Shown here in pieces: positions 9,760-53,700 of a stretch of 64,000 nucleotides of DNA. Below the pieces are notes generated by a model, which had not been told where the DNA came from, made no database searches, and was given only the letters and a program-made list of their open reading frames with translations. Position numbers and translations under genes: made by a program. This stretch comes from Pratylenchus scribneri (Eukaryota > Nematoda > Chromadorea > Rhabditida > Pratylenchidae): assembly GCA_030063045.1 (NCBI GenBank), contig JAQSEB010000049.1, forward strand, positions 496,001 to 560,000, written 5' to 3'. How positions within the stretch are numbered: position 1 is the stretch's first letter; every line of letters begins with the position of its first letter.

Positions 9760-12668
9760 TTAACGTGCTCCTCCAAAACGTGATGGCCCTCCGCCGGTCA
9801 ATGGTTGCCGATGGACCAATGTGCTAGTGCTTGTCCCGGGTGTGTTGGAATTGGTTAGGCCTCCGGCTGAAGATGTGCCACCCGTTGTTGCTGTGGGCGT
9901 GTTGCCGGTTGGTGTTGGATAATTGTAGAAGGCCGTCCAATAATCCTAAAAATAAAAATAATGATTTAAAAATGGAATGCTAAATTTAAATATTTTAGTG
10001 TCGAAAAATTGTTATTTTTTGGGCCAAAAAAACTTGTCAAAATCATATTGCTTTAATATTCCCATCAGACTCTAAACCTAGTCTTAACCTAAATCTACGC
10101 CTACCAAAGTCCAATTTAAAAAATTTCATATTGGCCAATGGCCAAGTTATGGGGTCTCAAAAATAATTTTTATTAATTAATATTATTTCATTGTAAAAAC
10201 AATTTTCAATTGAAATTTATGTAAAATATTCTCCATACATATTCCAAATTGAGCAGGGCAAAGAGGATTTCACATTGCCGGCCGGCTTCTTGAAAATGGC
10301 GAGCGGCATCGGCGCCCAATAATGGACTCTTTGTTGAGGTTGGCGTATTATTCTGCGGCTGCAAATGAGTCAGTTTGGATGAGGTGCCAACAACGGTTGG
10401 GCCCAACACTTTGGCCAAATTTTCCAAGGGCATCTAATAAATTGGGTGGAAATTATATTAAAAAATGGAATTTGCCAATTTCACCTGATTTTCATTGGAT
10501 CGCATTGCCACTTTCTGCCAATGGGCACAAAGATAGGCCAATGTGTCCCGATTTGGGATGGGCAAAGTTTCGATGGCATATTTGAGCTGGGCTTCATCTT
10601 GGCGGGCCACTGCATTGCAAAATTCTTTGTACGAAGAGAATGGGATCAATGGTTCCTGGAAAAAGTGAAGAAATTTTAAAAATGGTTCTGGTAATCTATT
10701 TTATTTTATATATTCTATTTACCTAAAAATATATTATAAATTTATTAAAATGCACAAAAGTATTTATTAAGCCCCGAAAAATTATTGTCCTCTGAGCGGA
10801 TTCGATCCCGAGACTTAAATTTTAATTTTACTATTCCTTCCTTTGAGTCGAAAATTTTCAAAATTTCTTGAAAATCCTATTAAGCCTAAACCAAACCTAG
10901 AAAAATTAAATATATTTTACTTACTCGCATATCTCGAAGGAATTTTTTGATATATCCAGTGATGGTCTCCGGATCGAGTTGGTCCAATTTTGGCACATAT
11001 TTGGAGTTGAAATTCTCCTTCAACTTTTTGACTTCACTGTCGCATCCGGGCACTCGGTAGAGGCCAACCGTGTTCAGAAAACATCGCTCCAAAGTGACAA
11101 CGCATCGAATTAGCTGGCCAGGAATTTTGGGGGGAGTTTCATGGCATAAATCCGCCAACCGGGGTCGTTGCTTTGGATTGGGCCGTTGCGGTGTTGGAAT
11201 TATTGGAACGCATGGGAATGGGGCATTCGGGCGGCAATTCTCGTGGATTTGTAATTTGCAATCTGGAAATGAAATTGGAAAATTGATTTGATTTTCGAAG
11301 TAAATTTGAAATAAAAAATAAATATTCCCTTACCGCTGCATTTGAGTGCCCGTCCACCCAATCCGCGCATACAAATGCTGCAATGACAAAATGCGGCACC
11401 GAACCATTTGTTGATTTGGGTGAAATTGTGCCCGCACTGCTCAATTGGCCTTCCCTTTGTCCAACCGGAGCCAAAACCAATAGCCACTGCCGGGCTCAAA
11501 TGCCTTAATTAAATTCAAATTAATGGAATTAATTGCAATTACTCCTCCCATCTTTAGGTTGAAAATTTAATTTTTGTTAAAATCTTCTGTGTAAACCTAA
11601 GCCAACCTAAACCAAACTAACCTATAGGGTAAAGTCCCCAAAAATTGGCTTACATATCCAAGGAGCTGATTGCACCAAATTTGTTTAAGGTTGCCTGCTT
11701 TTGCCTCTGTTGTTCTTGTTGTTTGGCAATTTCCCTTTTGTCCTCATGTAGACGTCCTTCCGACATTGAGCGATTTACGGCACGTTGACGTGACATTCGA
11801 GTGGCCGGTTGTTGGGGGAGTACTTCGGTCATTGCGTCCTCCTCTTCCGCCAAACGTTCCATGCTTCGGTCCTGCTGATGAACAATCGAGTTTATAAGTA
11901 CGCATTATTAATTTATTAAACCTGTTTTTCCATCAATCGCTTAGCCTTTTTGTCCGGCAAAACGCCCAATGAATTGGAACGCCGCTTCCCTATTCGAACA
12001 CCGCCGCCCTCATAAAATCCATTTCCTGCATTGTTTGTGGGATTTGCTCGTTTTTGAGTGGAAAATGCATTTTGGTCGTCATTTTCGGTGTCTTCATCGG
12101 TCGGTGCCATCAATGTGACTGATTTCTGTCCGATTGGGTTGACCAGTGTGGCGTTCTGACATTTTTAGGATTTTTTCTAAGTTCCAATTTAATCGCAAAC
12201 CTGAAGTTCCAAACGTGCCCGATTGAATCGTTCTTTGTATTGGTCCAATTCGAGTCGGAGGGCGGCATTGAGTTCTTGGTCGGCTGCATGTTGCGAATTC
12301 AATCGCTGATTTTCCACTCGTGCCTCGGCCAAAGCCGTCTCGAAGTTCCTTTTGGAAATTCAATTAATTATGCATATTTTGGCTTACTCAATTTGGCGTT
12401 TGAGCCGTCCATTCTGCTCCCGTAGTTGGGCATTCTCGCCGCTGGCTGCTCGCCATCCTCGCTGCATATTCTCCATTAGATCGATCACAGTCATAACTGC
12501 AAAAAAAGATAATTATTCCATCAATTTATCATATTTGAAACCTTGCTGTTCTCTTTGCTCCTCCAAAACGGCTAGTTGGAATTGTTTGCGAATTTTGGTG
12601 AGAAGCTCGATGGATTCCCGCGATCCATTGGACAAAAATTGTTGTCGATTTTCATTATTGTCAAACAT
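9760..12668 (-). CDS. cyk-4: CYK-4 / MgcRacGAP (RACGAP1), centralspindlin RhoGAP
   Basis: Ten exons on the minus strand: 12668-12542, 12496-12388, 12348-12201, 12155-11922, 11874-11654, 11503-11334, 11262-10925, 10655-10485, 10433-10239 and 9945-9760, giving 632 residues, the family's usual size. Domain order matches RACGAP1: an N-terminal coiled coil (about residues 40-125) that in the family binds the kinesin-6 ZEN-4/MKLP1; a basic/Ser linker; a C1 zinc finger from His305 with CHC..C and further Cys/His in the next exon; and a RhoGAP domain (about 370-550) with the arginine finger in GLYRVPGC (about Arg406) and the motifs NRDTLAYLCAH and NLAKVLGPTVV. The protein works with ZEN-4 at the central spindle to direct Rho in cytokinesis. 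The exon 5 acceptor is a CAGCAG tandem site, so one Gln may be optional. It is transcribed divergently from the FKBP gene. A partial paralogue lies at 46.3-49.6 kb. Confidence 0.95.
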
Positions 12669-39100: not shown

Positions 39101-42100
39101 ACATTGCCTCATTGAGTTCCTCATCCACTGTTCGAAATGATTTGTTCCTGACGGACATTCGAACGGGTCAAAAACGACGCATTCGACCCGAGCAAGAGGA
39201 ATCGCCGGTGGAAGCAATTCGCGTGTCGCATTATAGGTTTGCAAAATTAGTAAATGAATTTGGAATTTTGGAGGCAATTTTTGAATGGGACATTTTTAAT
39301 TTCTTTAATTTAACTGTCCTATCTCGACCAGAGTTAATTAACTCTCCCAGCAGAAAACTCTAAATATTGATTAACAAATTGAGGAATAAAATTGAAAATT
39401 AATTTAAAAAATGAATAATTAAATGTTTGCATCCTATAAAAATGCAAAATTAAATTCATAAAAATCCATATTTTATTTTTCCAGTTCCTATTTGGCCATT
39501 TCCTTTCGACAACATCCCCTGGAAATTTGGGACCTAGGAACGCAAAGATTGCTTCGTCGAATGAATAAACGGTGCCCAATAATTGTGGACATGTGCTGGA
39601 GTGGAAAACATCATCAAGCCAAAATGGTCGGGGAAAAGACGCGGATTTACCGCGAAAATTTGGTCGTTTTGGACAATGACAATCATTTGTGAGTTTACTA
39701 ATTAAATTTAATATTTAAAAATAAATTATTTATGTTTAACAAAAGCAATTTTTCAGGTACCATGTAGTGGTGAAGGGATTGCATGTTAGGGATGGGAAGG
39801 AAGTGTCCACCCAATGGAAGAGCGGTGCCGCCTTTTTGCGTTGTATGGTTTGGAAGGTTTTCAATTTCATTTTAAATATAATTAAAAATCTATTCTCAAT
39901 AAAAATGATTTAATTAATTAATTAATTAATTTCAAAGGAGGATGTGTTGGCATTTGGCGACTCCGCCGGCCGAATTGGTGTCTGGGATTTAGCCCGTTCG
40001 CAATGTCGACAATCTGGCCTAAGCCATTCCACCCGAGGTCCAGTCCACCGAATTGTGTTTTCCAAACTGGCCGGCGATTATACTTTAGCGGTTTCTTTTT
40101 ATTTAATTTTTAATTGGGAAATAATTAAATAGAACATTGATAAAAAAAATTTATTTTAAAATTTAAATTTATTTTAATATGGGAATAATTACCTAGTACA
40201 TTGGAAAAGATTTTAGTTTAAAATTTAAAAATTTTTCCGGATTTTAACTTTATTTAATTAAAAATTCGAACTTTAAAAAATATAAAAAAAATATTGCAAA
40301 TATCTCACCAACGAGTTTAATAATTAAAAAAATATTTTTTTTCAGGCCCAACATCCAACTTCAATCGTGATTTGGGACACTGAAAAATTGAGCGTAATTT
40401 TCTCAATCCAACGCTCGGGGCTTAGCATAATTGATGTAGATATTTGCGGATTGACGCCAGGCAAGTCATTTACAGCCAACAAATTAATTTTATTTAATTT
40501 TGCAGTTTATTTGACTTCGGATGGAATGTTCCGAATGGCATTGTCCTCCACTGATAATGAGAAGGAACGGAACACGTCTATTAATGATTCGGGTAATTTT
40601 ATTATATATTTCATTTTAAAAATAAATCCTAAATCCAATTCACCCATGTAGAAACGCCTCTTCTCCTTCAGCCAAAATACATTGAAGCAATCCAACAAAT
40701 TGCATCAACACCAACAATTGATGACAAAAAATCATTGCTCAAAGAAATGGACCCGGTGGATTGCGATTTTTTGCTTGACCGAATTGCCCAAAAGCCAAAT
40801 TCACTTCAACGATTGGCTTTTGCCCATCAATTCAATGGCAATTCGGCGCTGGCCAATTTTTGTAGAGTCGTGGACGGCGCAAAATGTGACAGAGAACAAC
40901 AATTACCAACCGAATTGTTGCTTTTCTGGGGCAAAGAGGCTTATAAGGTTTACAATAATTATTTAAAAAATGAAAAAGAAAAGGATAAAAAAGAAAAGAC
41001 CCCAAGGGAATTGAACCGCGACTAAAGAAGAAAAAATCCAGGGCGTTTATCCATTAGGCCATCGGGTCCAACGGCGATGGATTAAAAATTAAAATTATAT
41101 TTTGGAATAAAATAAAATTTAATTTCAATAATTTCCCATAAATTGACAGAAACGAATGGAATTGTTGACCCGGCTTCTTCTCGCAACGAGTCGAAATGAA
41201 CAACAATTGGAACAGGCAATTGAGAAATGCATAATCATGAAAAAGGTTGGTCCTATTTATTTTTTAATATTAAAAATTTTAAGAAAATTGTTTTGAATTT
41301 TCGAATTAAAATATTCAATTTTTTCCAAATTCACGAATATTTTGTGATTTTTTACAGACCGAATTGGCCATGTACTATTTGTTGAACAATGAACAAATGC
41401 TTTCAAACCGCCGGGAGACAATTCGACTGAATGGTCAGAAATTTATAAATAAATTATTAATTAATTTAATTATTTCTACAGCCTTTCGTGCCTGCGTTCT
41501 GTCAGCCAATTTCGAAGGCGAAGAGGCCAAATGTTTGGTTAAGTTGACTGCCACAAATTTAATTGCTCAAAATTTCGTTTCTGGTTCGTTTTTTCATAAA
41601 ATTTTTTATTTAATTTTTGATTTAATTATTTCCAAAATATTAATTTATCCTCTATTCAGAAGGAATTCAATTGCTTTGTTTGATTGACCAAAGTTTGGAT
41701 GCCTGCAAATATTTGATTTCTCAAGGCCTCTGGGAAAGAAGTTTGTTATATTCAAAGGTTGGATTTGGATTTAAAAAAATTGAAAAATTCAAATTAATAA
41801 TTAGATAAATCCAAATTGCGATTTTGTGGAAATCTACGGCCGCTATGCGGAATATTTGGAATCAATTGGACGGAAGGTTAATTAAATTTTCGATAAATTA
41901 AATTTTTTATTATTATTAATTTAAAAAATAAGCATTTAAAATCATTATTCATTATTTCCATCATCTTTTTTTTTTCAGAGTTTGGCATTGATGGTTTTGG
42001 TCAATTTGGGCGGAAAATTACGACAACATGAACGTTTTGGCCCTCTAATCGAAGGAATGGCAAATGCACAAGAAATTAGTCGAATTTTGAAAATTGCAGA

Positions 42101-42107
42101 AGAATAA
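36101..42107 (+). CDS. WDR11: WDR11, WD-repeat protein of endosome-to-TGN vesicle capture
   Basis: Twenty-one exons: 36101-36159, 36205-36316, 36568-36739, 36815-37012, 37128-37468, 37864-38115, 38197-38297, 38499-38777, 39057-39236, 39485-39688, 39757-39856, 39938-40090, 40346-40460, 40506-40592, 40652-40947, 41150-41245, 41358-41433, 41482-41583, 41660-41757, 41805-41876 and 41979-42107, giving 1073 residues (human about 1224). Family landmarks along the length: GIIAFGCHSTLVFLDARRL, ASSDISGNIFVWDVRLG, SLDPFEPNRMA, LPCARRDALFLVHQNGLC, AAIGTSVGIVHLVDVFAGK, SYLAISFRQHPLEIWDLG, LAFGDSAGRIGVWDLARS and IQLLCLIDQSLDACKYL. Two beta-propellers are followed by a helical C-terminus. In other animals WDR11 binds FAM91A1 and acts in AP-1 vesicle tethering. 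Intron 36740-36814 lacks any AG and appears to end in TG. Intron 40461-40505 starts with GC (CAG|GCAAGT). The last codons lie in a tandem duplication. Confidence 0.93.
38894..38967 (+). other. tRNA-like sequence in WDR11 intron
   Basis: TAGTCGAATTGGTAACGG resembles box A, and GGGTTCGATTCCC is a good box B with paired T stem. The acceptor stem pairs only partly (about five of seven) and the anticodon arm is weak, so a tRNA pseudogene or SINE head is more likely than an active tRNA. Confidence 0.35.
40997..41067 (-). tRNA. tRNA-Arg-like gene or pseudogene in WDR11 intron
   Basis: Read on the minus strand it starts GACCCGATGGCCTAATGGAT, the usual tRNA-Arg D-arm layout, and ends GGTTCAATTCCCTTGGGGTC. 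Six of seven acceptor pairs form. The anticodon stem is weak, with GT pairs and an oversized T-rich loop, so the anticodon cannot be assigned with confidence and this may be a pseudogene. Confidence 0.4.
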
Positions 42108-42446
42108 TAAATTATAATATTGGATTTTTGATACAGAACAGAGCTTTATTGAATTATACTCCACAAATTCCCATTGATTTTATTTTAGTCCACTCCAAAA
42201 TAATGTGATTTTTCTTATTTAAATTGACCAAAAATCTATTTTTTGATTGTATAAAATTATTTACGAATTTTGAAAATTGCAGAAGAATAATAAATTATAA
42301 TATTGGATTTTTGATACAGAACAGAGCTTTATTGAATTATACTCCACAAATTCCCATTGATTTTATTTTAGTCCACTCCAAAATAATGTGATTTTTCTTA
42401 TTTAAATTGACCAAAAATCTATTTTTTGATTGTATAAAATTATTTA
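42081..42446 (+). repeat. 183-bp tandem duplication of the WDR11 3' end
   Basis: Two apparently identical 183-bp copies, 42081-42263 and 42264-42446. Each contains the last nine codons including the stop, plus the first part of the 3' flank. Only the first copy is joined to the reading frame. Confidence 0.9.
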
Positions 42447-42481
42447 AAATAAACTGATGCATCCATTAAAACAGAAGATGC

Positions 42482-42930
42482 AAAACAATTTTTATATCAT
42501 TATATAGCCCAGAATCTGCCCTTTAATTTGATATAAAATTTATTTAATTTGGCCAATTTATTCCAGAGTTATGGCCCGAAAATCTGGTGCATTCCCCTTT
42601 GGATTTCATCGTTGATTTTTGCCTATTAAGTTCTATAATTTTATTTAAATCAAAACAATTTTTATATCATTATATAGCCTAGAATCTGCCCTTTAATTTG
42701 ATATAAAATTTATTTAATTCGGTAAATTTATTCCAAAGTTATGGCCCAAAAATGCTGCCCACTTCCCTTGGATTTCATCCATGTGTTTTTGCCTATTAAA
42801 TTCTATAATTTTATTTAAATCAAAGAAATTTTTATATCATTTTATAGCCCAGAATCTGCCCTTTAATTTGATATAAAATTTATTTCATTAGGCCAATTTA
42901 TTCCAGAGTTATGGCCCAAAAATGCTGAGC
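42482..42930 (-). repeat. About 170-bp satellite, left arm (about 2.7 units)
   Basis: Units start near 42491, 42660 and 42831 (TTTTTATATCATTATATAG), a spacing of 169-171 bp. Orientation is opposite to that of the right arm. Confidence 0.85.
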
Positions 42931-42984
42931 ACAATTCTTCCAATTGCCCTTTCATCCTTAAATAAAAGAAATTAAGTTCATCGT

Positions 42985-43560
42985 CCAGTGACCGCCTAGC
43001 GCATTGGTAATGTGCTTGGGTGAAAGTGGTTCGGGTTCGATTCCCGGCCGGGGATTGTATTTTTCCCCCTGCTTCCTTGTTCGCATTGAAGTGATGTCGT
43101 TGCCTCTCATGAACCAATAGAGTTAATACACAACAGCCGAGTTCCCGAGGGCTAGCCCTCCTCCAAAAGGAGTTTGGGGGCGCTTAGGCGACTGTGGGCC
43201 TCTTGGTTTGGGTTCCAAGACGGATACCATGCGGCACTATATGTGTCGGCGGACATGGGCCGACGTCCCCATTGGAGCATGAGAGGTGTCGATGTTCCCG
43301 ATTTGTGGCTTGGAAGTTAGGGCCATCTTCCCTAATCGACCAAGAGCTAGACGAATATACTCAATGGAAGAACTGGCACGGTTACGCCGACATTGAGGAG
43401 CCCTCATTTTTAGCATTTTTTTTTCAAATTAAAATCATTATGGAATTGGAAATTGGAGAAAAAAAGATGAAACAAATGGATTTAATTTGTATTTTGCCTT
43501 CATTTTTGCATACTTTTGCTTCATATTTCAGTTGTTAATCATCGTAAGACATGGTGAATA
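42985..43560 (+). mobile_element. tRNA-derived SINE-like module, left copy
   Basis: Begins with a tRNA-like head: box A TAGCGCATTGGTAATGTGC and box B GGGTTCGATTCCC, then GGCCGGGGATTG. The body is non-coding, GC-richer than its surroundings, with a CGAGGGCTAGCCCTC hairpin near 43147. A 114-codon ORF (43194-43538) occurs in both copies but shows no domain. Confidence 0.6.
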
Positions 43561-43660
43561 GACTCATTTGATGCGCAAGAGTGGATTTAGTATAAAAATT
43601 TCAAATCCAACTTATAATTGATAATAGCCCAAAAAGAATTGAGGAATATAAAGGGAAATA

Positions 43661-44400
43661 GTTTTTTGGCCATATCTTTGCTGGATGGCCATATATCGGA
43701 TACGAAATTGAAATTTTGCCTGTTAATTCGATCATTGCGCGTCGAATGAGCTATGGCCAAGGCCAAGTTGTTTTTACCGAAATTTGGACCCTCAATCCTC
43801 CATAAACCATAAAGCCCATTGGAATAAGGTGAAGTGGTTTTTTGGCCATATCTTTGCTGGATGGCCATATATCGGATACGAAATTGAAATTTTGCCTGTT
43901 AATTCGATCATTGCGCGTCGAATGAGCTATGGCCAAGGCCAAGTTGTTTTTACCGAAATTTGGACCCTCAATCCTCCATAAACCATAAAGCCCATTGGAA
44001 TAAGGTGAAGTGGTTTTTTGGCCATATCTTTGCTGGATGGCCATATATCGGATACGAAATTGAAATTTTGCCTGTTAATTCGATCATTGCGCGTCGAATG
44101 AGCTATGGCCAAGGCCAAGTTGTTTTTACCGAAATTTGGACCCTCAATCCTCCATAAACCATAAAGCCCATTGGAATAAGGTGAAGTGGTTTTTTGGCCA
44201 TATCTTTTGCTGGATGGCCATATATCGGATACGAAATTGAAATTTTGCCTGTTAATTCGATCATTGCGCGTCGAATGAGCTATGGCCAAGGCCAAGTTGT
44301 TTTTACCGAAATTTGGACCCTTAATCCTCCATAAACCATAAAGCCCATTGGAATAAGGTGAAGTGGTTTTTAGGCCATATCTTTGCTGGATGGCCATATA
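43661..44400 (+). repeat. 176-bp tandem array at palindrome centre
   Basis: Units begin at about 43661, 43837, 44013, 44189 and 44366: four full copies and a partial one. They are nearly identical (one copy has an extra T). Each unit starts TTTTTTGGCCATATCTTTGC. Confidence 0.92.
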
Positions 44401-44439
44401 TCGGAATCGAAATTGAAATCTAGACTACTAAATCCACTC

Positions 44440-45040
44440 TTGCGCATCAAATGAGTCTATTCACCATGTCTTACGATGATTAACAACTGAAATATGAAGC
44501 AAAAGTGTGCAAAAATGAAGGCAAAATACAAATTAAATCCATTGTTTCATATTTTTTTTCTCCAAATTTCCAATTCCATAATGATTTTAATTTGAAAAAA
44601 AATGCTAAAAATGAGGGCTCCTCAATGTCGGCGTAACCGTGCCAGTTCTTCCATTGAGTATATTCGTCTAGCTCTTGGTCGATTAGGGAAGATGGCCCTA
44701 ACTTCCAAGCCACAAATCGGGAACATCGACACCTCTCATGCTCCAATGGGGACGTCGGCCCATGTCCGCCGACACATATAGTGCCGCATGGTATCCGTCT
44801 TGGAACCCAAACCAAGAGGCCCACAGTCGCCTAAGCGCCCCCAAACTCCTTTTGGAGGAGGGCTAGCCCTCGGGAACTCGGCTGTTGTGTATTAACTCTA
44901 TTGGTTCATGAGAGGCAACGACATCACTTCAATGCGAACAAGGAAGCAGGGGGAAAAATACAATCCCCGGCCGGGAATCGAACCCGAACCACTTTCACCC
45001 AAGCACATTACCAATGCGCTAGGCGGTCACTGGACGATGA
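44440..45040 (-). mobile_element. tRNA-derived SINE-like module, right inverted copy
   Basis: Reverse complement of 42985-43560, including the tRNA-like head (44950-45035 when read on the minus strand). Differences are a few substitutions and short indels, so the duplication is recent or has been homogenised. Confidence 0.6.
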
Positions 45041-45086
45041 ACTTAATTTCTTCTATTTAAAGGGTGGAGGGGCAATCGGAAGAATT

Positions 45087-46032
45087 GTGCTCAGCATTTT
45101 TGGGTCATAACTCTGGAATAAATTGGCCGAATTAAATAAATTTTATACCAAATTAAAGAGCAGATTCTGGGCCATATAATGATATAAAAATTGTTTTGAT
45201 TTAAATAAAATTATAAAATTTAATTGGCAAAAATCAACGGTGAAATCCAAGGGAAGTGGACAGCATTTTTGGGCCATAACTCGGGAATAAATTGGCCAAA
45301 TTAAATAAATTTTATACAAAATTAAAGGGCAGATTCTGGGCTATAAAATGATATAAAAATTTCTTTGATTTAAATAAAATTATAGAATTTAATAGGCAAA
45401 AACACATGGATGAAATCCAAGGGAAGTGGACAGCATTTTTGGGCCATAACTCGGGAATAAATTGGCCAAATTAAATAAATTTTATACAAAATTAAAGGGC
45501 AGATTCTGGGCTATAAAATGATATAAAAATTGTTTTGATTTAAATAAAATTATAAAATTTAATTGGCAAAAATCAACGGTGAAATCCAAGGGAAGTGGAC
45601 AGCATTTTTGGGCCATAACTCGGGAATAAATTGGCCAAATTAAATAAATTTTATACAAAATTAAAGGGCAGATTCTGGGCTATAAAATGATATAAAAATT
45701 TCTTTGATTTAAATAAAATTATAGAACTTAATAGGCAAAAACACATGGATGAAATCCAAGGGAAGTGGGCAGCATTTTTGGGCCATAACTCTGGAATAAA
45801 TTGGCCAAATTAAATAAATTTTATACAAAATTAAAGGGCAGATTCTGGGCTATAAAATGATATAAAAATTGTTTTGATTTAAATAAAATTATAAAATTTA
45901 ATTGGCAAAAATCAACGGTGAAATCCAAGGGAAGTGGACAGCATTTTTGGGCCATAACTCGGGAATAAATTGGCCAAATTAAATAAATTTTATATCAAAT
46001 TAAAGGGCAGATTCTAGGCTATTAAATCATAT
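45087..46032 (+). repeat. Satellite array of alternating 169- and 170-bp units, right arm
   Basis: CAGCATTTTTGGGYCATAAC recurs at 45092, 45261, 45431, 45600, 45770 and 45939. Units alternate between a type with AAATCAACGGTG and TTGTTTTGATT and a type with AACACATGGATG and TTCTTTGATT, giving a dimeric repeat of about 339 bp. Confidence 0.9.
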
Positions 46033-46290: not shown

Positions 46291-49200
46291 TCAATAAAGC
46301 TTTCCAAGTGTTTGCTTCCATTGGGCCGGCAATTTCGGGCGGATTGATGGCAAATATTGTTTTTCCGTCGACGATTCTTGTTGTTGTTCTCCTTGTCCGG
46401 CATTTTGTCCATCGCCATTGCTCAGGAATGAGCCAAGTGTGATGCCGCCGCCAGCATTGGTTGGATTTGTTGGTTCCATTAATGGTGGCAATGCCGCCGG
46501 CGCCGGTCCCCCACTTTCCAATGTTGTCAAAATTGTCTTCATTGGTTTTGGTTGTTGTTTGGAAGAAAGCGGCGGCGGCGGTGGTGGCAATGTGGCAGAG
46601 CCGGTGGAAAAATTAATTGGAATTGGACTGGCCATTCGGCGATTGTTGTGGCGATGTTGTTGTTGGCGACAAAAAATGGACGAGGCCGGCGAGTAGGGTG
46701 TAAGTCGCTGAAAAATTGTTCAAATTTATTAAAATATATTTTTTTAAATTTAATTTTTAGTTTAGAGAATATTTGGAAATGGGAATTATTAAAAAGCATT
46801 CAAACTTCTTAAAGAAAAGAGAAAATGGGGTCGGGGGTTCGAACCCGCGTGGAGGCATGTAATTTTTTTCTGATGGGAATTTTTTAGTAAAGAGAATATT
46901 CGACAAAATTGAGTCTTTTTTAGGTTGAAATTATTTAAAATAAATATTTTAAAATTTTTAACCAAAAATAAAAGTGAAAAGGGTCGAGAGTTCGAACCCG
47001 CGTGGAGGTGGGAGGTATGTAATTTTTTCTGGTGGGTTAGTGAAAAGAATATTTGGAAAAATTGAGTCTTTTTTTAGGTTGAAATTTATTAAGTGTTTTA
47101 AATTTTTTAAAATTAAATTAAACAACAATTAAATACAAAAAAAGGTCGAAAGTTCGAACCCGCGTGGAGGCTTATAATTTTTTGGTATAAAAATTTTAGG
47201 ACCATTTTTAACACTTACATATTTGAATGATTTTCCGCGTGGTTCCGAGCTCGGCGGCGGATATTGTTGTTCGCCATCGTTGCCTTCACCATTTTCCCGT
47301 CCTCCTCCTCCCCACTTCCTTCGGCTGGGCGGAGTTCCGCCAATTCGCACGGGGATTCGATGGCGCGGCCGAGTGGACACCGGCGTCAATTGATGGTTTT
47401 GATGCATTTGCTTGGATTGAGGCGGCGGCGATTTTTGCACTGACATTTTTGGCGTTGGCATTCGATTGGCGGAATTGGCAGCCGCCGATGGGACGAACAA
47501 TGGGCCAAGCACCAATTTTGGCGGATTCACGGGGAAAGGCGAGAGGAAATCCAACGGCTGAATAATAATAATAATAAATATTAATAAATGAGGGATTTGT
47601 TGAATTTTTTTGAATTTTTCATTCCAAAAAATTATTCTAAGCATTTTGAAAAGGAAAAAGAATTATATGAGAATACTTTCCCTTTCTCAAATTTTATTTT
47701 CCTCATTTTTTAGACAGATTGAAAAATTTTTTTATATATAAAATTTAAAAAATGAAGAGAGCGCTTTCTATCCCCAATTCATATTCCTATGTTTTTTTTA
47801 TAATATTGGTACTAATGGAATTTGTCCCCTACGGGGGAAAGGATGAGGATGAAGAAGAAGGGAGCTAAGGTGATTTTCTTCATTATCTTTTTTATCATCA
47901 TCCTCCTTCCCTTGCAGGAAGACAAACTCCATTAGTACCAAAATATTTTCCAAATTTGCCATATCCCAGAAAACCCTAATTTAAACCTGTTTATCGGACA
48001 AAACGCCCACTGAATTGGAACGTCGCCTCCTTGCACGGTCTCCTCCTCCGGCCGCAAGCGGCGGCAATCCATCCTTTGGACCATGATTTGTTGGTTGTTG
48101 AGCCAAAAATACATTTTCGTCGTCATCCTCTTCGGTTGTGTCCTCATCCGCCGGTGTGACTTTCTTCTGCGGCTGGTCGGTTGGTGGCATTCCTATTCCT
48201 ATTTCGAGTCCGGCGTTCTTAAATTATTAAATCATTTTTATTTGAATAGAATGACATTAATATTGGTGGTTTTTGCCTTTTTCAGTTCCTAGGATTTATA
48301 TTCCCTAGCAGGCACACCGAGCACCGAGCAGCAGGGGGCTGGGACCTGGGAGGGAGTTTACTGAAATCAAATAAAAACCCCCAAGTTTTTCGTTCTCTTG
48401 TTTTTCGGTGCTGGTGGAAAGATTTCTAGTCATTTTTAACCAAAAATTGTCATCAAAATTTTCCGAATTTTAGTGAAAATTTTGCCTAGAAAATCTTCCA
48501 ACTTCCAGCCATTACTTTCAATTCTACTTCAGTTTTTTATTCGGTTGCCATTGGATTGGGGGAAACATTGGAACTTTTTGCCTATTCAGAACTATCTTTT
48601 AATCTTCGAGATTTTTTATTCCAAGGAAAGCACCCTCTCTCTCTTCTCTTATGGCTATAGCCCATCTACCGTCCAAAAATCCAATTTTAAAAAAGAATCA
48701 AAATTTGAAACCTGAATTTCCAAACGTGCCCGATTGAATCGTTCCTTGTATTGGTCCAATTCGAGTTGGAGGGAACCAATGAGTTCTTCGTCGGCTGCAT
48801 GTTGCGAATTCAGTCGCTGATTTTCCACTCGTGCCTCGGCCAAAGCCGTCTCGAAGTTCCTTTTGGAAATTTTCAATTAATGAAGCAAATTTTGGACTTA
48901 CTCAATTTGGCGTTTGAGCCGTCCATTCTGTTCCCGAAGTTGGACATTCTCGCCGCTGGCTGCTCGCCATCCTCGCTGCATTTCCTCCATCAAATCGACC
49001 ACATTCATGACTGAAATATGATGATAATAAGTTGAGAATAATTGTATTGATTTTTTGTGGGAAGTTTGTCTTAATCAGCTCTTAATGCTCTATCAATATT
49101 ACCCCGATCATTCATTCCAATGGGAAGACTTAAAATCATCTAGCAAAAAACCTTAAGTTTCGTTCTCCATAAAACCTTAAGTTTTGGTATAAAAAACCCT

Positions 49201-49557
49201 TGGTTTTGTTCATCCAAAAACCCTAAGTTTTTGGATATTGTCAAAAAAGTTTCATAAATTACTTTTTGTCATATAAACTTTAAGAATTTCTTTCCAGCAG
49301 CTTCTTTGATAAAGAATGCATAATATTCCTAACTGGTGGGATTAATTCCTAACTTTCTCTTGATTTCATTTTCGCCCAGTTAATTGAATAATTGACCCAT
49401 ATTCCCATTTCATTTTTATTTGTAAACCTTGTTGTTCTCTGTGCCCTTCCAGCACTGCTTGTTGGAATTGTTTGCGTATTTTGGTGCAGAGTTCGATGGA
49501 TTTCCGCGATTCATGGGACAAAAGTTGTTGATTTTCATTGTCGTCGGCAGGAAACAT
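46291..49557 (-). CDS. Chimeric gene: duplicated CYK-4 N-terminal coiled coil joined to a Pro/Gly-rich C-terminus
   Basis: Exons on the minus strand: 49557-49428, 49010-48902, 48859-48712, 48217-47987, 47557-47219 and 46707-46291, giving 457 residues with all phases compatible. Exons 1-4 are a close copy of cyk-4 exons 1-4 (12.7-11.9 kb): same intron positions and phases, and long identical blocks such as MQRGWRAASGEN and NFETALAEARVENQRLNSQ. It then departs: after SDKQ there is no C1 finger and no RhoGAP domain. Exons 5-6 encode a Pro/Gly/Gln-rich, basic stretch (RRKWGGGGREN, PPPPPPLSSKQQ) ending QWKQTLGKLY, which I do not recognise. If exons 4 and 5 are one transcript, the product could bind the CYK-4 partner ZEN-4 or CYK-4 itself without GAP activity; this is inference. 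The two halves might instead be separate genes. Confidence 0.65.
46826..47175 (+). repeat. Three intronic copies of a box-B-like motif
   Basis: GTTCGAACCCGCGTGGAGG occurs near 46842, 46989 and 47151, each preceded by GGTCG and followed, usually, by TAATTTTTT. Spacing is about 150-160 bp within one intron of the chimeric gene. Box-B-like GTTCGAACCC suggests degenerate tRNA-derived repeats. No full tRNA fold is visible. Confidence 0.6.
47806..47942. mobile_element. Hairpin/MITE-like element, 137 bp
   Basis: TTGGTACTAATGGAATTTGT at the left is matched by the complement at the right (CTCCATTAGTACCAA), and the inner parts (GATGAGGATGAAG against ATCATCCTCC) pair loosely. It lies in the intron joining the CYK-4-like and Pro-rich halves of the chimeric gene. 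No clear target duplication. Confidence 0.6.
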
Positions 49558-50738: not shown

Positions 50739-53700
50739 ATGGGCTGCGCATTCAGCAGTTCCACACAAATTTTTGTGATCGATGCTGGCCATCGCCAGCA
50801 GAGGAGAATTGGCCGACAAAATAATGGCGGTGCATTTTCATGGTTTTCTCATGTTCGACAAGGTAAAAAGTCGTAATGGCAGGCACATTGTGCAATTAAA
50901 AAAAGATACCTATATAGTAATTTAATTAGTCGAAAAAAGAGTTAACAAACATAACGATAAATTGATTAAGCCAAACAAAAAAAAAACATAAATAGAATTA
51001 CAATTACAATCGCAAATCAGAATTACAATTACAAATCAGAATTACAATTACAATCGCAAATCAGAATTACAATTAGAATCGCAAATCAGAATTACAATTA
51101 CAATCGCAAATCAGAATTACAATTACAAATCAGAATTACAATTACAATCGCAAATCAAAATTACAATTACAATCGCAAATCAGAATTACAATTACAAATC
51201 AGGATTACAATTACAAATCAGAATTATAATTACAAATCAGAATTACAATTACAATCGCAAATCAGAATTACAATTACAAATCAGAATTACAATTACAAAT
51301 CAGAATTACAATTACAATCGCAAATCAGAATTATAATTACAATCGCAAATCAGAATTACAATTACAAATCAGAATTACAATTACAATCGCAAATCAAAAT
51401 TACAATTACAATCGCAAATCAGAATTACAATTACAATCGCAAATCAGAATTACAATTACAATCGCAAATCAGAATTACAATTACAATCGCAAATCAGAAT
51501 TACAATTACAATCGCAAATCAGAATTACAATTACAATCGCAAATCAGAATTACAATTACAATCGCAAATCAGAATTACAATTACAATCGCAAATCAGAAT
51601 TACAATTACAATCGCAAATCAGAATTACAATTACAAATCAGAATTACAATTACAAATCAGAATTACAATTACAAATCAGAATTACAATTACAAATCAGGA
51701 TTACAATTACAAATCAGGATTACAATTACAATCGCAAATCAGAATTACAATTACAAATCAGAATTACAATTACAATCGCAAATCAGAATTACAATTACAA
51801 ATCAGAATTACAATTACAATCGCAAATCAGAATTACAATTACAATCGCAAATCAGAATTACAATTACAATCGCAAATCAGAATTACAATTACAAATCAGA
51901 ATTACAATTACAATCGCAAATCAGAATTACAATTACAAATCAGAATTACAATTACAATCGCAAATCAGAATTACAATTACAATCGCAAATCAGAATTACA
52001 ATTACAATCGCAAATCAGAATTACAATTACAATCGCAAATCAGAATTACAATTACAAATCAGAATTACAATTACAATCGCAAATCAAAATTACAATTACA
52101 ATCGCAAATCAGAATTACAATTACAATCGCAAATCAGAATTACAATTACAATCGCAAATCAGAATTACAATTACAATCGCAAATCAGAATTACAATTACA
52201 ATCGCAAATCAGAATTACAATTACAATCGCAAATCAGAATTACAATTACAAATCAGAATTACAATTACAATCGCAAATCAGAATTACAATTACAATCGCA
52301 AATCAGAATTACAATTACAATCGCAAATCAGAATTATAAATCAGAATCTTTTTCAAGAATTTTTTTGAACAATTAAATATTATTATTTCCAGGTTTAAAC
52401 TCACAGCAAAGAAGACCATCCAAAATTGCGGGCAGTACCGCCTTTTGGCTTTCCAAAACGAAAAGTGGAAATGATGCAGTGTTGGTTGGCCAATTGAAAT
52501 CCAATGGAACGTATTCGAGGCGAAGGCCAAGCAGTGAGGCACGATTCATTGAGCATAGGTCCAGAATTTCATTGCGCAATGGGCAACAGCATTTGGCAAA
52601 TGGGAATGGCCAAAACAGGTCCTAAAAAATTTTGATGAATTAAAATTTAAATAGAATAAAGCTGTAAAAATTATTAAAAGATGATCAAATATATTAATTT
52701 CTTTAATTTTTAAAGGCAAAATCACTATCCCGATGGTCGGAAACTCTCAAATCCCCAAAGAAAAAATTCCCCAAAAAATGAAACTGCTCAAGGCCATTAT
52801 GGACTCATGGATTTTCAAAAGCGTTTGGAACGTTTGAAAAACCGCAAATTTGAGGGACAAAATGAAATGGAAAGGGCGGAAATGGGAGGAGGAGGAGGAA
52901 ATGGCCCAGCAAAGGGGGAGGATGGAAACGCGGAATTGGGGCCAAAAATGACCGAAATGGAGAGGCCAATGATGCCAATAACAATAGGAAAAAGGCAAAT
53001 GATGAATGGTGGAATTGGAATTGTTGGAGGAGGAGGTAATATGAAGGCAAAAGAGCCAGTGGAGCCCCTCATTGTCAACCATTTGTCGGCAATTGGGGAA
53101 TTAAGCGGCGATGAGCATCATCTATTCGATTTGAACGATGGGTGCGTCCCAAATTACCGTATTCTTCTCCAATAGAAAAATCTCTAAGAGAGCTCACGTT
53201 CCCTGACCCTGACGCTAGATACAACTCCCAATCCATGCCCAAAATTTCACTATCCCGGTAATATAGTGCAAAATTTAATTATTCTTAAAATTATGTTAGA
53301 ATATTGTAAATTATGAAAATATCACAAAGTTTAAATTATGAAAATTATTCTAAGATATGAAGCTAAAAATATAGGCAGAATTTGTCATTATGAAAATATA
53401 TCGCAAAATATGCGAATTATAAACATATGACTGAAATTAGACTATTCTGAAAATAATAGGGAAATCTAGTAAATTATTAAAATAATTCTGAAAATTTCTA
53501 AATTCTCAACATATCTTATTTTTTATATTTTAAAATTATTCTTAAAATATGATTCATTTTTATGTTGAAAATAAATATATTCTGAGCATATATTTTGAAT
53601 TCTAGAAATTCCCACAATTATTTTTAAAATAGATCTTTATTGGCAATGCTAGTATTGTGTACTATTTCTGTTAGACGAACAGAGATGGGCTCTGTTTATT

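What the first reader, a model, noticed from the sequence alone, without database searches (positions are those of the whole stretch)
46291..49557. Partial cyk-4 paralogue keeps only the coiled-coil half and appears fused to a new C-terminus
Seen directly: exons 1-4 copy cyk-4 exons 1-4 in sequence, intron position and phase, 35 kb away on the same strand; there is no C1 or RhoGAP sequence after them. Known: in CYK-4/RACGAP1 the N-terminal coiled coil binds the kinesin-6 partner. Inference: a truncated product could compete for ZEN-4 or dimerise with CYK-4 without GAP activity, a possible new regulator of centralspindlin; alternatively it is a decaying duplicate.
Basis: partly seen in the sequence, partly recalled or inferred. 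Interest (0 to 1): 0.8.

Follow-up and report, generated by a model that had tools for sequence, protein, structure and literature searches.

The report
Conserved GAP-less CYK-4 paralogue in nematode
Next to a normal cell-division gene (cyk-4), this worm genome carries a second, shorter version that keeps the half by which such proteins pair up but has swapped the signalling half for a new tail; three diverged copies in the genome indicate that selection has kept it as a coding gene.

Summary
A six-exon gene at 49557-46291 (minus strand, 457 aa) copies cyk-4 exons 1-4 in sequence, intron position and phase, then continues into two Pro-rich exons with no C1 or RhoGAP. It does not look like a decaying duplicate. 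The genome (by its statistics the Pratylenchus scribneri assembly) holds three diverged copies, on contigs C49, C58 and C11. In all three the splice sites and frame are kept. Exon gaps are multiples of three in 13 of 13 blocks, against 22 of 90 in introns, and whole-protein dN/dS is 0.20-0.31. The duplication is older than the split of the three copies. Coiled-coil exons 2-3 and the intron between them are much closer to cyk-4 than exons 1 and 4, as gene conversion would give. No homologue of the tail was found in this genome or in the protein database searched. Best reading: a GAP-less, C1-less CYK-4-type subunit that dimerises through the coil, possibly with CYK-4, and acts on centralspindlin. 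Transcript joining, binding and function are untested, and ZEN-4 was not recognised here. A more novel reading, that the tail keeps the PRC1-docking motif lost from full-length CYK-4, is only hinted at (LVLGPLFVP; 6-7% by chance).

The parts
49428..49557 (-). exon 1: start codon and N-terminal segment before the coil, counterpart of the CYK-4 region that binds ZEN-4 in C. elegans
   Evidence: PMC4395295 passages
48902..49010 (-). exon 2: start of coiled coil, homologous to cyk-4 exon 2 (12496-12388)
48860..48901 (-). intron 2 (42 nt): across the copies 0-5 differences from cyk-4 intron 2, a mark of gene conversion
48712..48859 (-). exon 3: rest of coiled coil, homologous to cyk-4 exon 3 (12348-12201)
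47987..48217 (-). exon 4: acidic linker and basic RRRRSNSVGVL stretch, homologous to cyk-4 exon 4 (12155-11922)
47558..47986 (-). intron 4, where homology to cyk-4 stops; if retained, the frame ends after one codon (GTT TAA)
47219..47557 (-). exon 5: new C-terminus (113 aa), contains LVLGPLFVP and RPRHRIPVR
46291..46707 (-). exon 6: Pro/Gln-rich last exon (138 aa and stop), ends TEKQYLPSIRPKLPAQWKQTLGKLY
9760..12668 (-). parent-type gene cyk-4, ten exons, coiled coil + C1 + RhoGAP, 631 aa

Best explanation
A protein-coding gene made by an old duplication of cyk-4 in which the downstream part (C1, RhoGAP, tail) was lost or replaced at intron 4 by two exons coding a Pro-rich tail that looks disordered by composition. 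Its product is a CYK-4-type subunit without GAP or membrane module. It should dimerise through the coiled coil, with itself and probably with CYK-4. By holding the ZEN-4-binding N-terminus without C1-GAP, it would make centralspindlin that still supports the central spindle but cannot dock on membrane RhoA. Shown: gene structure, conservation, selection, absence of C1/GAP, coil identity. Inferred: joined transcript, dimerisation, ZEN-4 binding, effect on cytokinesis.
For: Three copies (C49, C58, C11), each on a contig with cyk-4. All 10 intron ends and the frame kept in 3 of 3. Exon gap blocks 13 of 13 multiples of 3, introns 22 of 90; exon identity 0.93-0.99, introns 0.71-0.87 apart from the 42-nt intron 2. 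dN/dS 0.26, 0.31, 0.20, upper bootstrap limits 0.43, 0.56, 0.34; exons 1-3 0.10, 0.17, 0.09. Coil 76/86 identical to CYK-4, same heptad register with a 3.5-residue peak. Synonymous change against cyk-4 on the same contig is 0.14-0.20 per site in exons 2-3 and 0.46-0.51 in exons 1+4, Fisher p 6e-5 to 7e-4; intron 2 differs at 0-5 of 39-42 bases. In C. elegans CYK-4 1-120 suffices for dimer and ZEN-4 complex, and its dimerised first 40 aa suffice to slow the motor (PMC4395295 passages). CYK-4(E448K), impaired in C1-GAP, still binds ZEN-4 and supports the central spindle, and the authors raise the possibility that complexes with even one mutant C1 or GAP fail to target (PMC6056237 passages).
Against: No transcript or protein evidence. 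Taken alone, exon 6 (dN/dS 0.60, 0.79, 0.28) and exon 4 (0.36, 0.29, 0.24) each have two of three intervals that pass 1. Exon 1, the presumed ZEN-4-binding part, has drifted (32/41 identical to cyk-4) and is poorly alignable to other nematodes. No ZEN-4 orthologue was recognised in the assembly with two C. elegans ZEN-4 fragments (inconclusive). No homologue of the short protein in the protein database.
Confidence: 0.5

Rival explanations
1. Conserved gene, but no longer a centralspindlin part: a coiled-coil scaffold that took on a new role through its tail (neofunctionalisation), with the coil kept like CYK-4's merely by gene conversion.
For: Exons 1 and 4 diverged from cyk-4 (dN 0.11-0.15 and 0.27-0.31); ZEN-4 not recognised; constraint is looser than in cyk-4, whose exons 1-4 have dN/dS 0.04-0.06.
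Against: Exons 1-3 have dN/dS 0.09-0.17 among the copies, so the coil half is itself under selection.
Confidence: 0.22
2. A natural 'coil + tail' CYK-4: exons 5-6 descend from the post-GAP tail of an ancestral CYK-4, so the gene is cyk-4 minus C1-GAP and docks centralspindlin on PRC1/SPD-1.
For: Exon 5 holds LVLGPLFVP, resembling SILGPVTT, an SPD-1-binding motif of the CYK-4 tail; an artificial CC+Tail CYK-4 binds SPD-1 (PMC4557309, passages and section 7). Plectus CYK-4 tail against exon 5: 3 of 2000 shuffles reach the score. The P. scribneri full-length tail and the 6 tails scored among its 10 closest hits lack a convincing motif.
Against: Motif score reached by 345, 321 and 287 of 5000 shuffles of the three tails, 6-7%. 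Own cyk-4 tail against exon 5: 630 of 2000. The Plectus result is the best of 20 comparisons.
Confidence: 0.12
3. Two transcripts: exons 1-4 end just past the exon-4 donor (stop GTT TAA, 207 aa coil-only protein) and exons 5-6 belong to a separate or alternative transcript.
For: The in-frame stop after the donor (CAGGTTTAA) is present in all three copies.
Against: Donor and acceptor kept in all three and both phase 0; exon 5 is open and conserved from its first codon, 32 codons before its first Met; GTTT donors are also used by other exons of both genes.
Confidence: 0.1
4. Decaying duplicate or annotation artefact.
For: Only genomic sequence is available; exons 4 and 6 taken alone are not clearly constrained.
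Against: Frame, splice sites and stop kept in three copies with 13 of 13 exon gap blocks in threes; whole-protein dN/dS intervals all below 0.6.
Confidence: 0.04

Closest known systems
CYK-4 / MgcRacGAP / RACGAP1 (centralspindlin subunit)
   Same: N-terminal segment, coiled coil and linker homologous to cyk-4 exons 1-4, with the same intron positions and phases
   Different: no C1, no RhoGAP; new 251-aa C-terminus; upstream region not shared (homology starts only about 23 bases before the ATG)
Engineered CYK-4 fragments C120 and C40G (PMC4395295) and CC+Tail (PMC4557309), passages seen
   Same: coil half alone, or coil plus a tail, without C1-GAP
   Different: those are laboratory constructs; this is a genomic gene, and its tail is not demonstrably a CYK-4 tail
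CYK-4(E448K), cyk-4(or749ts) (PMC6056237), passages seen
   Same: ZEN-4-binding half present without working C1-GAP
   Different: a point-mutant allele, not a separate gene

Membership tests
CYK-4/RACGAP1 | N-terminal dimerising coiled coil homologous to CYK-4 | tested here: met
   76/86 identical to cyk-4 residues 43-128; heptad pattern with 3.5-residue peak; dimerisation itself not tested
CYK-4/RACGAP1 | short ZEN-4-binding segment before the coil | tested here: inconclusive
   homologous segment present (32/41 identical to cyk-4) but drifted; binding cannot be tested
CYK-4/RACGAP1 | C1 domain | tested here: not met
CYK-4/RACGAP1 | RhoGAP domain | tested here: not met
   0 of 3 copies
CYK-4/RACGAP1 | SILGPVTT and K/R-X-K/R tail motifs that bind PRC1/SPD-1 | tested here: inconclusive
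   LVLGPLFVP, 6-7% by shuffling; RPRHR present but easily met by chance in a basic stretch
centralspindlin | kinesin-6 partner ZEN-4 in the same genome | tested here: inconclusive
   not recognised with two C. elegans fragments; 4 of 18 rows were not read; the Pfam kinesin search did not complete
centralspindlin | PRC1/SPD-1 in the same genome | not tested
   the PF03999 search did not complete (7 tries)
processed or decaying pseudogene | lost introns or disabling changes | tested here: not met
   introns and frame kept in 3 of 3 copies

The most novel reading that the evidence does not exclude
Centralspindlin has been split between two genes: full-length CYK-4 keeps C1-GAP but has lost the PRC1-docking tail, while the short paralogue is a natural coil+tail subunit carrying that docking motif. 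The two heterodimerise through coils kept alike by gene conversion, so the ratio of the two proteins sets how far midzone bundling is uncoupled from membrane and Rho signalling.
Probability: 0.1. Interest if true: 0.8.

Novelty: new variant of a known kind. Interest (0 to 1): 0.5.

Why it matters
In the C. elegans papers seen here, the coil half (midzone building) and the C1-GAP half (membrane and Rho signalling) of CYK-4 were separated by mutants and constructs. A conserved gene that encodes the coil half without C1-GAP would be a natural separation-of-function subunit, and would let one ask whether an animal tunes cytokinesis by mixing GAP-bearing and GAP-less CYK-4 dimers.

Tried and rejected
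Rejected: pseudogene. Rejected: remnants of C1-GAP in or near the gene. Rejected as far as searched: tail borrowed from a gene that still exists elsewhere in this genome. The protein search with the first 153 of 251 tail residues found only the same three copies, and the DNA search with exons 5-6 and intron 5 found these and three short matches of 80, 39 and 53 bases on C1, C98 and C64.

Not supported enough: tail as ancestral CYK-4 tail. Own cyk-4 tail against exon 5 was no better than shuffles (630 of 2000). The two clear positives (P0012, P0020) helped build the matrix, so they are no independent control.

Led nowhere: homologues of the short protein (the 7996 candidates sharing most words scored, none at E <= 0.001, residues 205-335, 90 candidates, none at E <= 10). 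The database does hold tylenchid CYK-4 proteins (19 hits to C1-GAP), but the best identity was 71-72% and none was named Pratylenchus, so absence from other Pratylenchus is not shown. PDB search with the coil gave only weak GpsB coil matches. ZEN-4: one search gave three rows, of which one locus (L057) was readable and looked like kinesin-2; of the 18 rows, 14 were read (10, 4) and none showed the ZEN-4 THLF stretch; 4 rows were not read, and locus L058 was fetched but not used. Kinesin class labels are my reading. Structure prediction was not used, because the spliced protein is not contiguous in the window.

Print searches in the held library: 'Pratylenchus'+'cyk-4' 0 papers; the RACGAP1/centralspindlin paralogue searches listed nothing whose title or abstract start spoke of a GAP-less paralogue (listings only).

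Full report
Source. The genome holding the window has 276 contigs and 227,248,964 bases. A published Pratylenchus scribneri assembly has 276 contigs, 227.24 Mb and contig N50 1.72 Mb (PMC10138993, abstract start and passages), and contig C58 is 1,720,069 bases long. I therefore take the species to be P. scribneri, a root-lesion nematode; this is an inference from the statistics.

The observation. The short gene (49557-46291, minus) and cyk-4 (12668-9760, minus) were modelled exon by exon. The short protein is 457 aa: 206 aa from exons 1-4, 113 from exon 5, 138 from exon 6. cyk-4 is 631 aa with C1 and RhoGAP and matches RACGAP1 GAP structures best. Exons 1-4 share intron positions and phases. 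DNA homology covers the coding exons, about 23 bases upstream of the ATG, and ends at the exon-4 donor; introns 1 and 3 differ greatly in length. No C1 or GAP remains were found.

It is a kept gene. DNA searches found two more copies, on C58 and C11, each on the same contig as a cyk-4 about 37-39 kb away. Aligned, all three keep the start, the stop, all ten intron ends and the frame. Distinct gap blocks: 13 of 13 in exons are multiples of three, against 22 of 90 in introns (two pairs among the 13 overlap, so the number of events may be 11). Exons are 93-99% identical, introns 71-87% (the 42-nt intron 2 is 88-98%). dN/dS (Nei-Gojobori, 300 bootstraps) is 0.26, 0.31 and 0.20 for the three pairs, upper limits 0.43, 0.56, 0.34; tail alone 0.32, 0.42, 0.23, upper limits 0.65, 0.90, 0.45. 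Taken singly, exon 5 gives 0.11, 0.21, 0.16 (upper limits 0.32, 0.73, 0.61), exon 4 gives 0.36, 0.29, 0.24 and exon 6 gives 0.60, 0.79, 0.28; exons 4 and 6 are each not separable from 1 in two of three pairs. cyk-4 exons 1-4 are tighter (0.04-0.06). So the short gene is constrained, most in the coil exons and exon 5, least in exon 6.

Age and gene conversion. Between short gene and cyk-4 on the same contig, dS is 0.51-0.60 in exon 1 and 0.82-1.0 in exon 4, against 0.09-0.13 among the short copies over the whole gene and 0.12-0.21 among the cyk-4 copies over exons 1-4: the duplication predates the split of the three copies. Exons 2-3 are much closer (0.14-0.20 synonymous changes per site against 0.46-0.51 in exons 1+4; Fisher p 6e-5, 6e-4, 7e-4), and intron 2 differs at only 0-5 of 39-42 sites. 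Gene conversion confined to the coil exons explains this best. Over exon 2 to exon 3 the cyk-4 copy nearest to each short copy is the one on its own contig, but by small margins (20-23 differences against 21-30 in about 298 bases, one near-tie). A caution: synonymous rates vary between exons without any paralogue being involved; among cyk-4 copies exon 3 dS is 0.26-0.41 while exon 1 is 0-0.04. The coil is 76/86 identical and keeps the same heptad register. Conversion could be neutral; it would also keep the dimer surfaces matched.

The tail. Neither exon 5 nor exon 6 gave a homologue in this genome apart from the three copies or in the protein database. One lead: among non-tylenchid nematode CYK-4 tails printed, P0012, P0014 and P0016 have S-I/L-L-G-P and P0015 has SILGS, while Strongyloides P0017 ends before it. 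Lee et al. found that SILGPVTT and K/R-X-K/R in the CYK-4 tail bind SPD-1, and that a CC+Tail construct binds (PMC4557309, passages and section 7). Exon 5 has LVLGPLFVP, inside a 43-nt run identical in all three copies. But a motif matrix from six sequences gives that score in 345, 321 and 287 of 5000 shuffles, so it stays a lead. The full-length P. scribneri tail and the six tails scored from its ten closest hits show no convincing motif; by eye P0009 has GYLGSMTP, a possible remnant.

Mechanism. In C. elegans CYK-4 1-120 dimerises and binds ZEN-4; suppressor mutations fall in CYK-4 12-39 and ZEN-4 477-515; dimerised residues 1-40 suffice to slow the motor (PMC4395295, passages). CYK-4(E448K), compromised in C1 and GAP, still binds ZEN-4 and supports the central spindle but fails in cytokinesis, and the authors raise the possibility that complexes with even one mutant C1 or GAP cannot reach the rachis surface (PMC6056237, passages). 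A protein with only the coil half is thus expected to support or compete for midzone assembly and to weaken membrane and Rho signalling when paired with CYK-4. Every step after the gene structure and its conservation is inference.

Limits. No RNA data. ZEN-4 was not recognised, but the search used short fragments and a heuristic first look, 4 of 18 rows were not read, the assembly reports 65.4% complete BUSCOs (PMC10138993), and the family searches for kinesins and PRC1 did not complete. No other Pratylenchus sequence was reached.

Noticed in passing
G000:C11:1228500-1235500 (L039) and 1265000-1272000 (L040): C11 carries two cyk-4 copies about 36.5 kb apart, 100% identical over 6997 bases, both broken off inside exon 8 so that the second half of the RhoGAP and the tail are missing; all ten exons were found only on C49 and C58. 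Recent duplication or assembly artefact.
   Followed up: partly
contigs C49, C58, C11 (and RhoGAP rows on C14/C35/C103): Three copies diverged by 1-7% in exons and 13-29% in most introns sit oddly with the published diploid estimate for P. scribneri; a triploid or hybrid genome is one possibility.
   Followed up: partly
window 42081-46032 and 50990-52000: The short gene lies between satellite-like tandem arrays: several arrays of 169-183 bp units downstream and a 25/44 bp array upstream, which reaches the end of the stretch scanned.
   Followed up: no
P0002, P0003, P0005, P0006, P0009, P0011 and window cyk-4 tail: These full-length CYK-4 tails (tylenchid or unnamed near hits) lack a convincing SILGPVTT motif, which is described as widely conserved in animals (PMC4557309).
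   Followed up: partly
G000: No clear ZEN-4 (kinesin-6) was recognised with two C. elegans ZEN-4 fragments; inconclusive.
   Followed up: partly
window 46816-47183: Intron 5 holds three copies of a repeat with GTTCGAACCCGCGTGGAGG, like a tRNA T-arm; ARAGORN (bacterial code) calls no tRNA gene in the window.
   Followed up: partly
window 49144-49248: Intron 1 contains a stretch with many dispersed relatives across the genome (by my count 131 of 144 listed matches lie in or around it).
   Followed up: no
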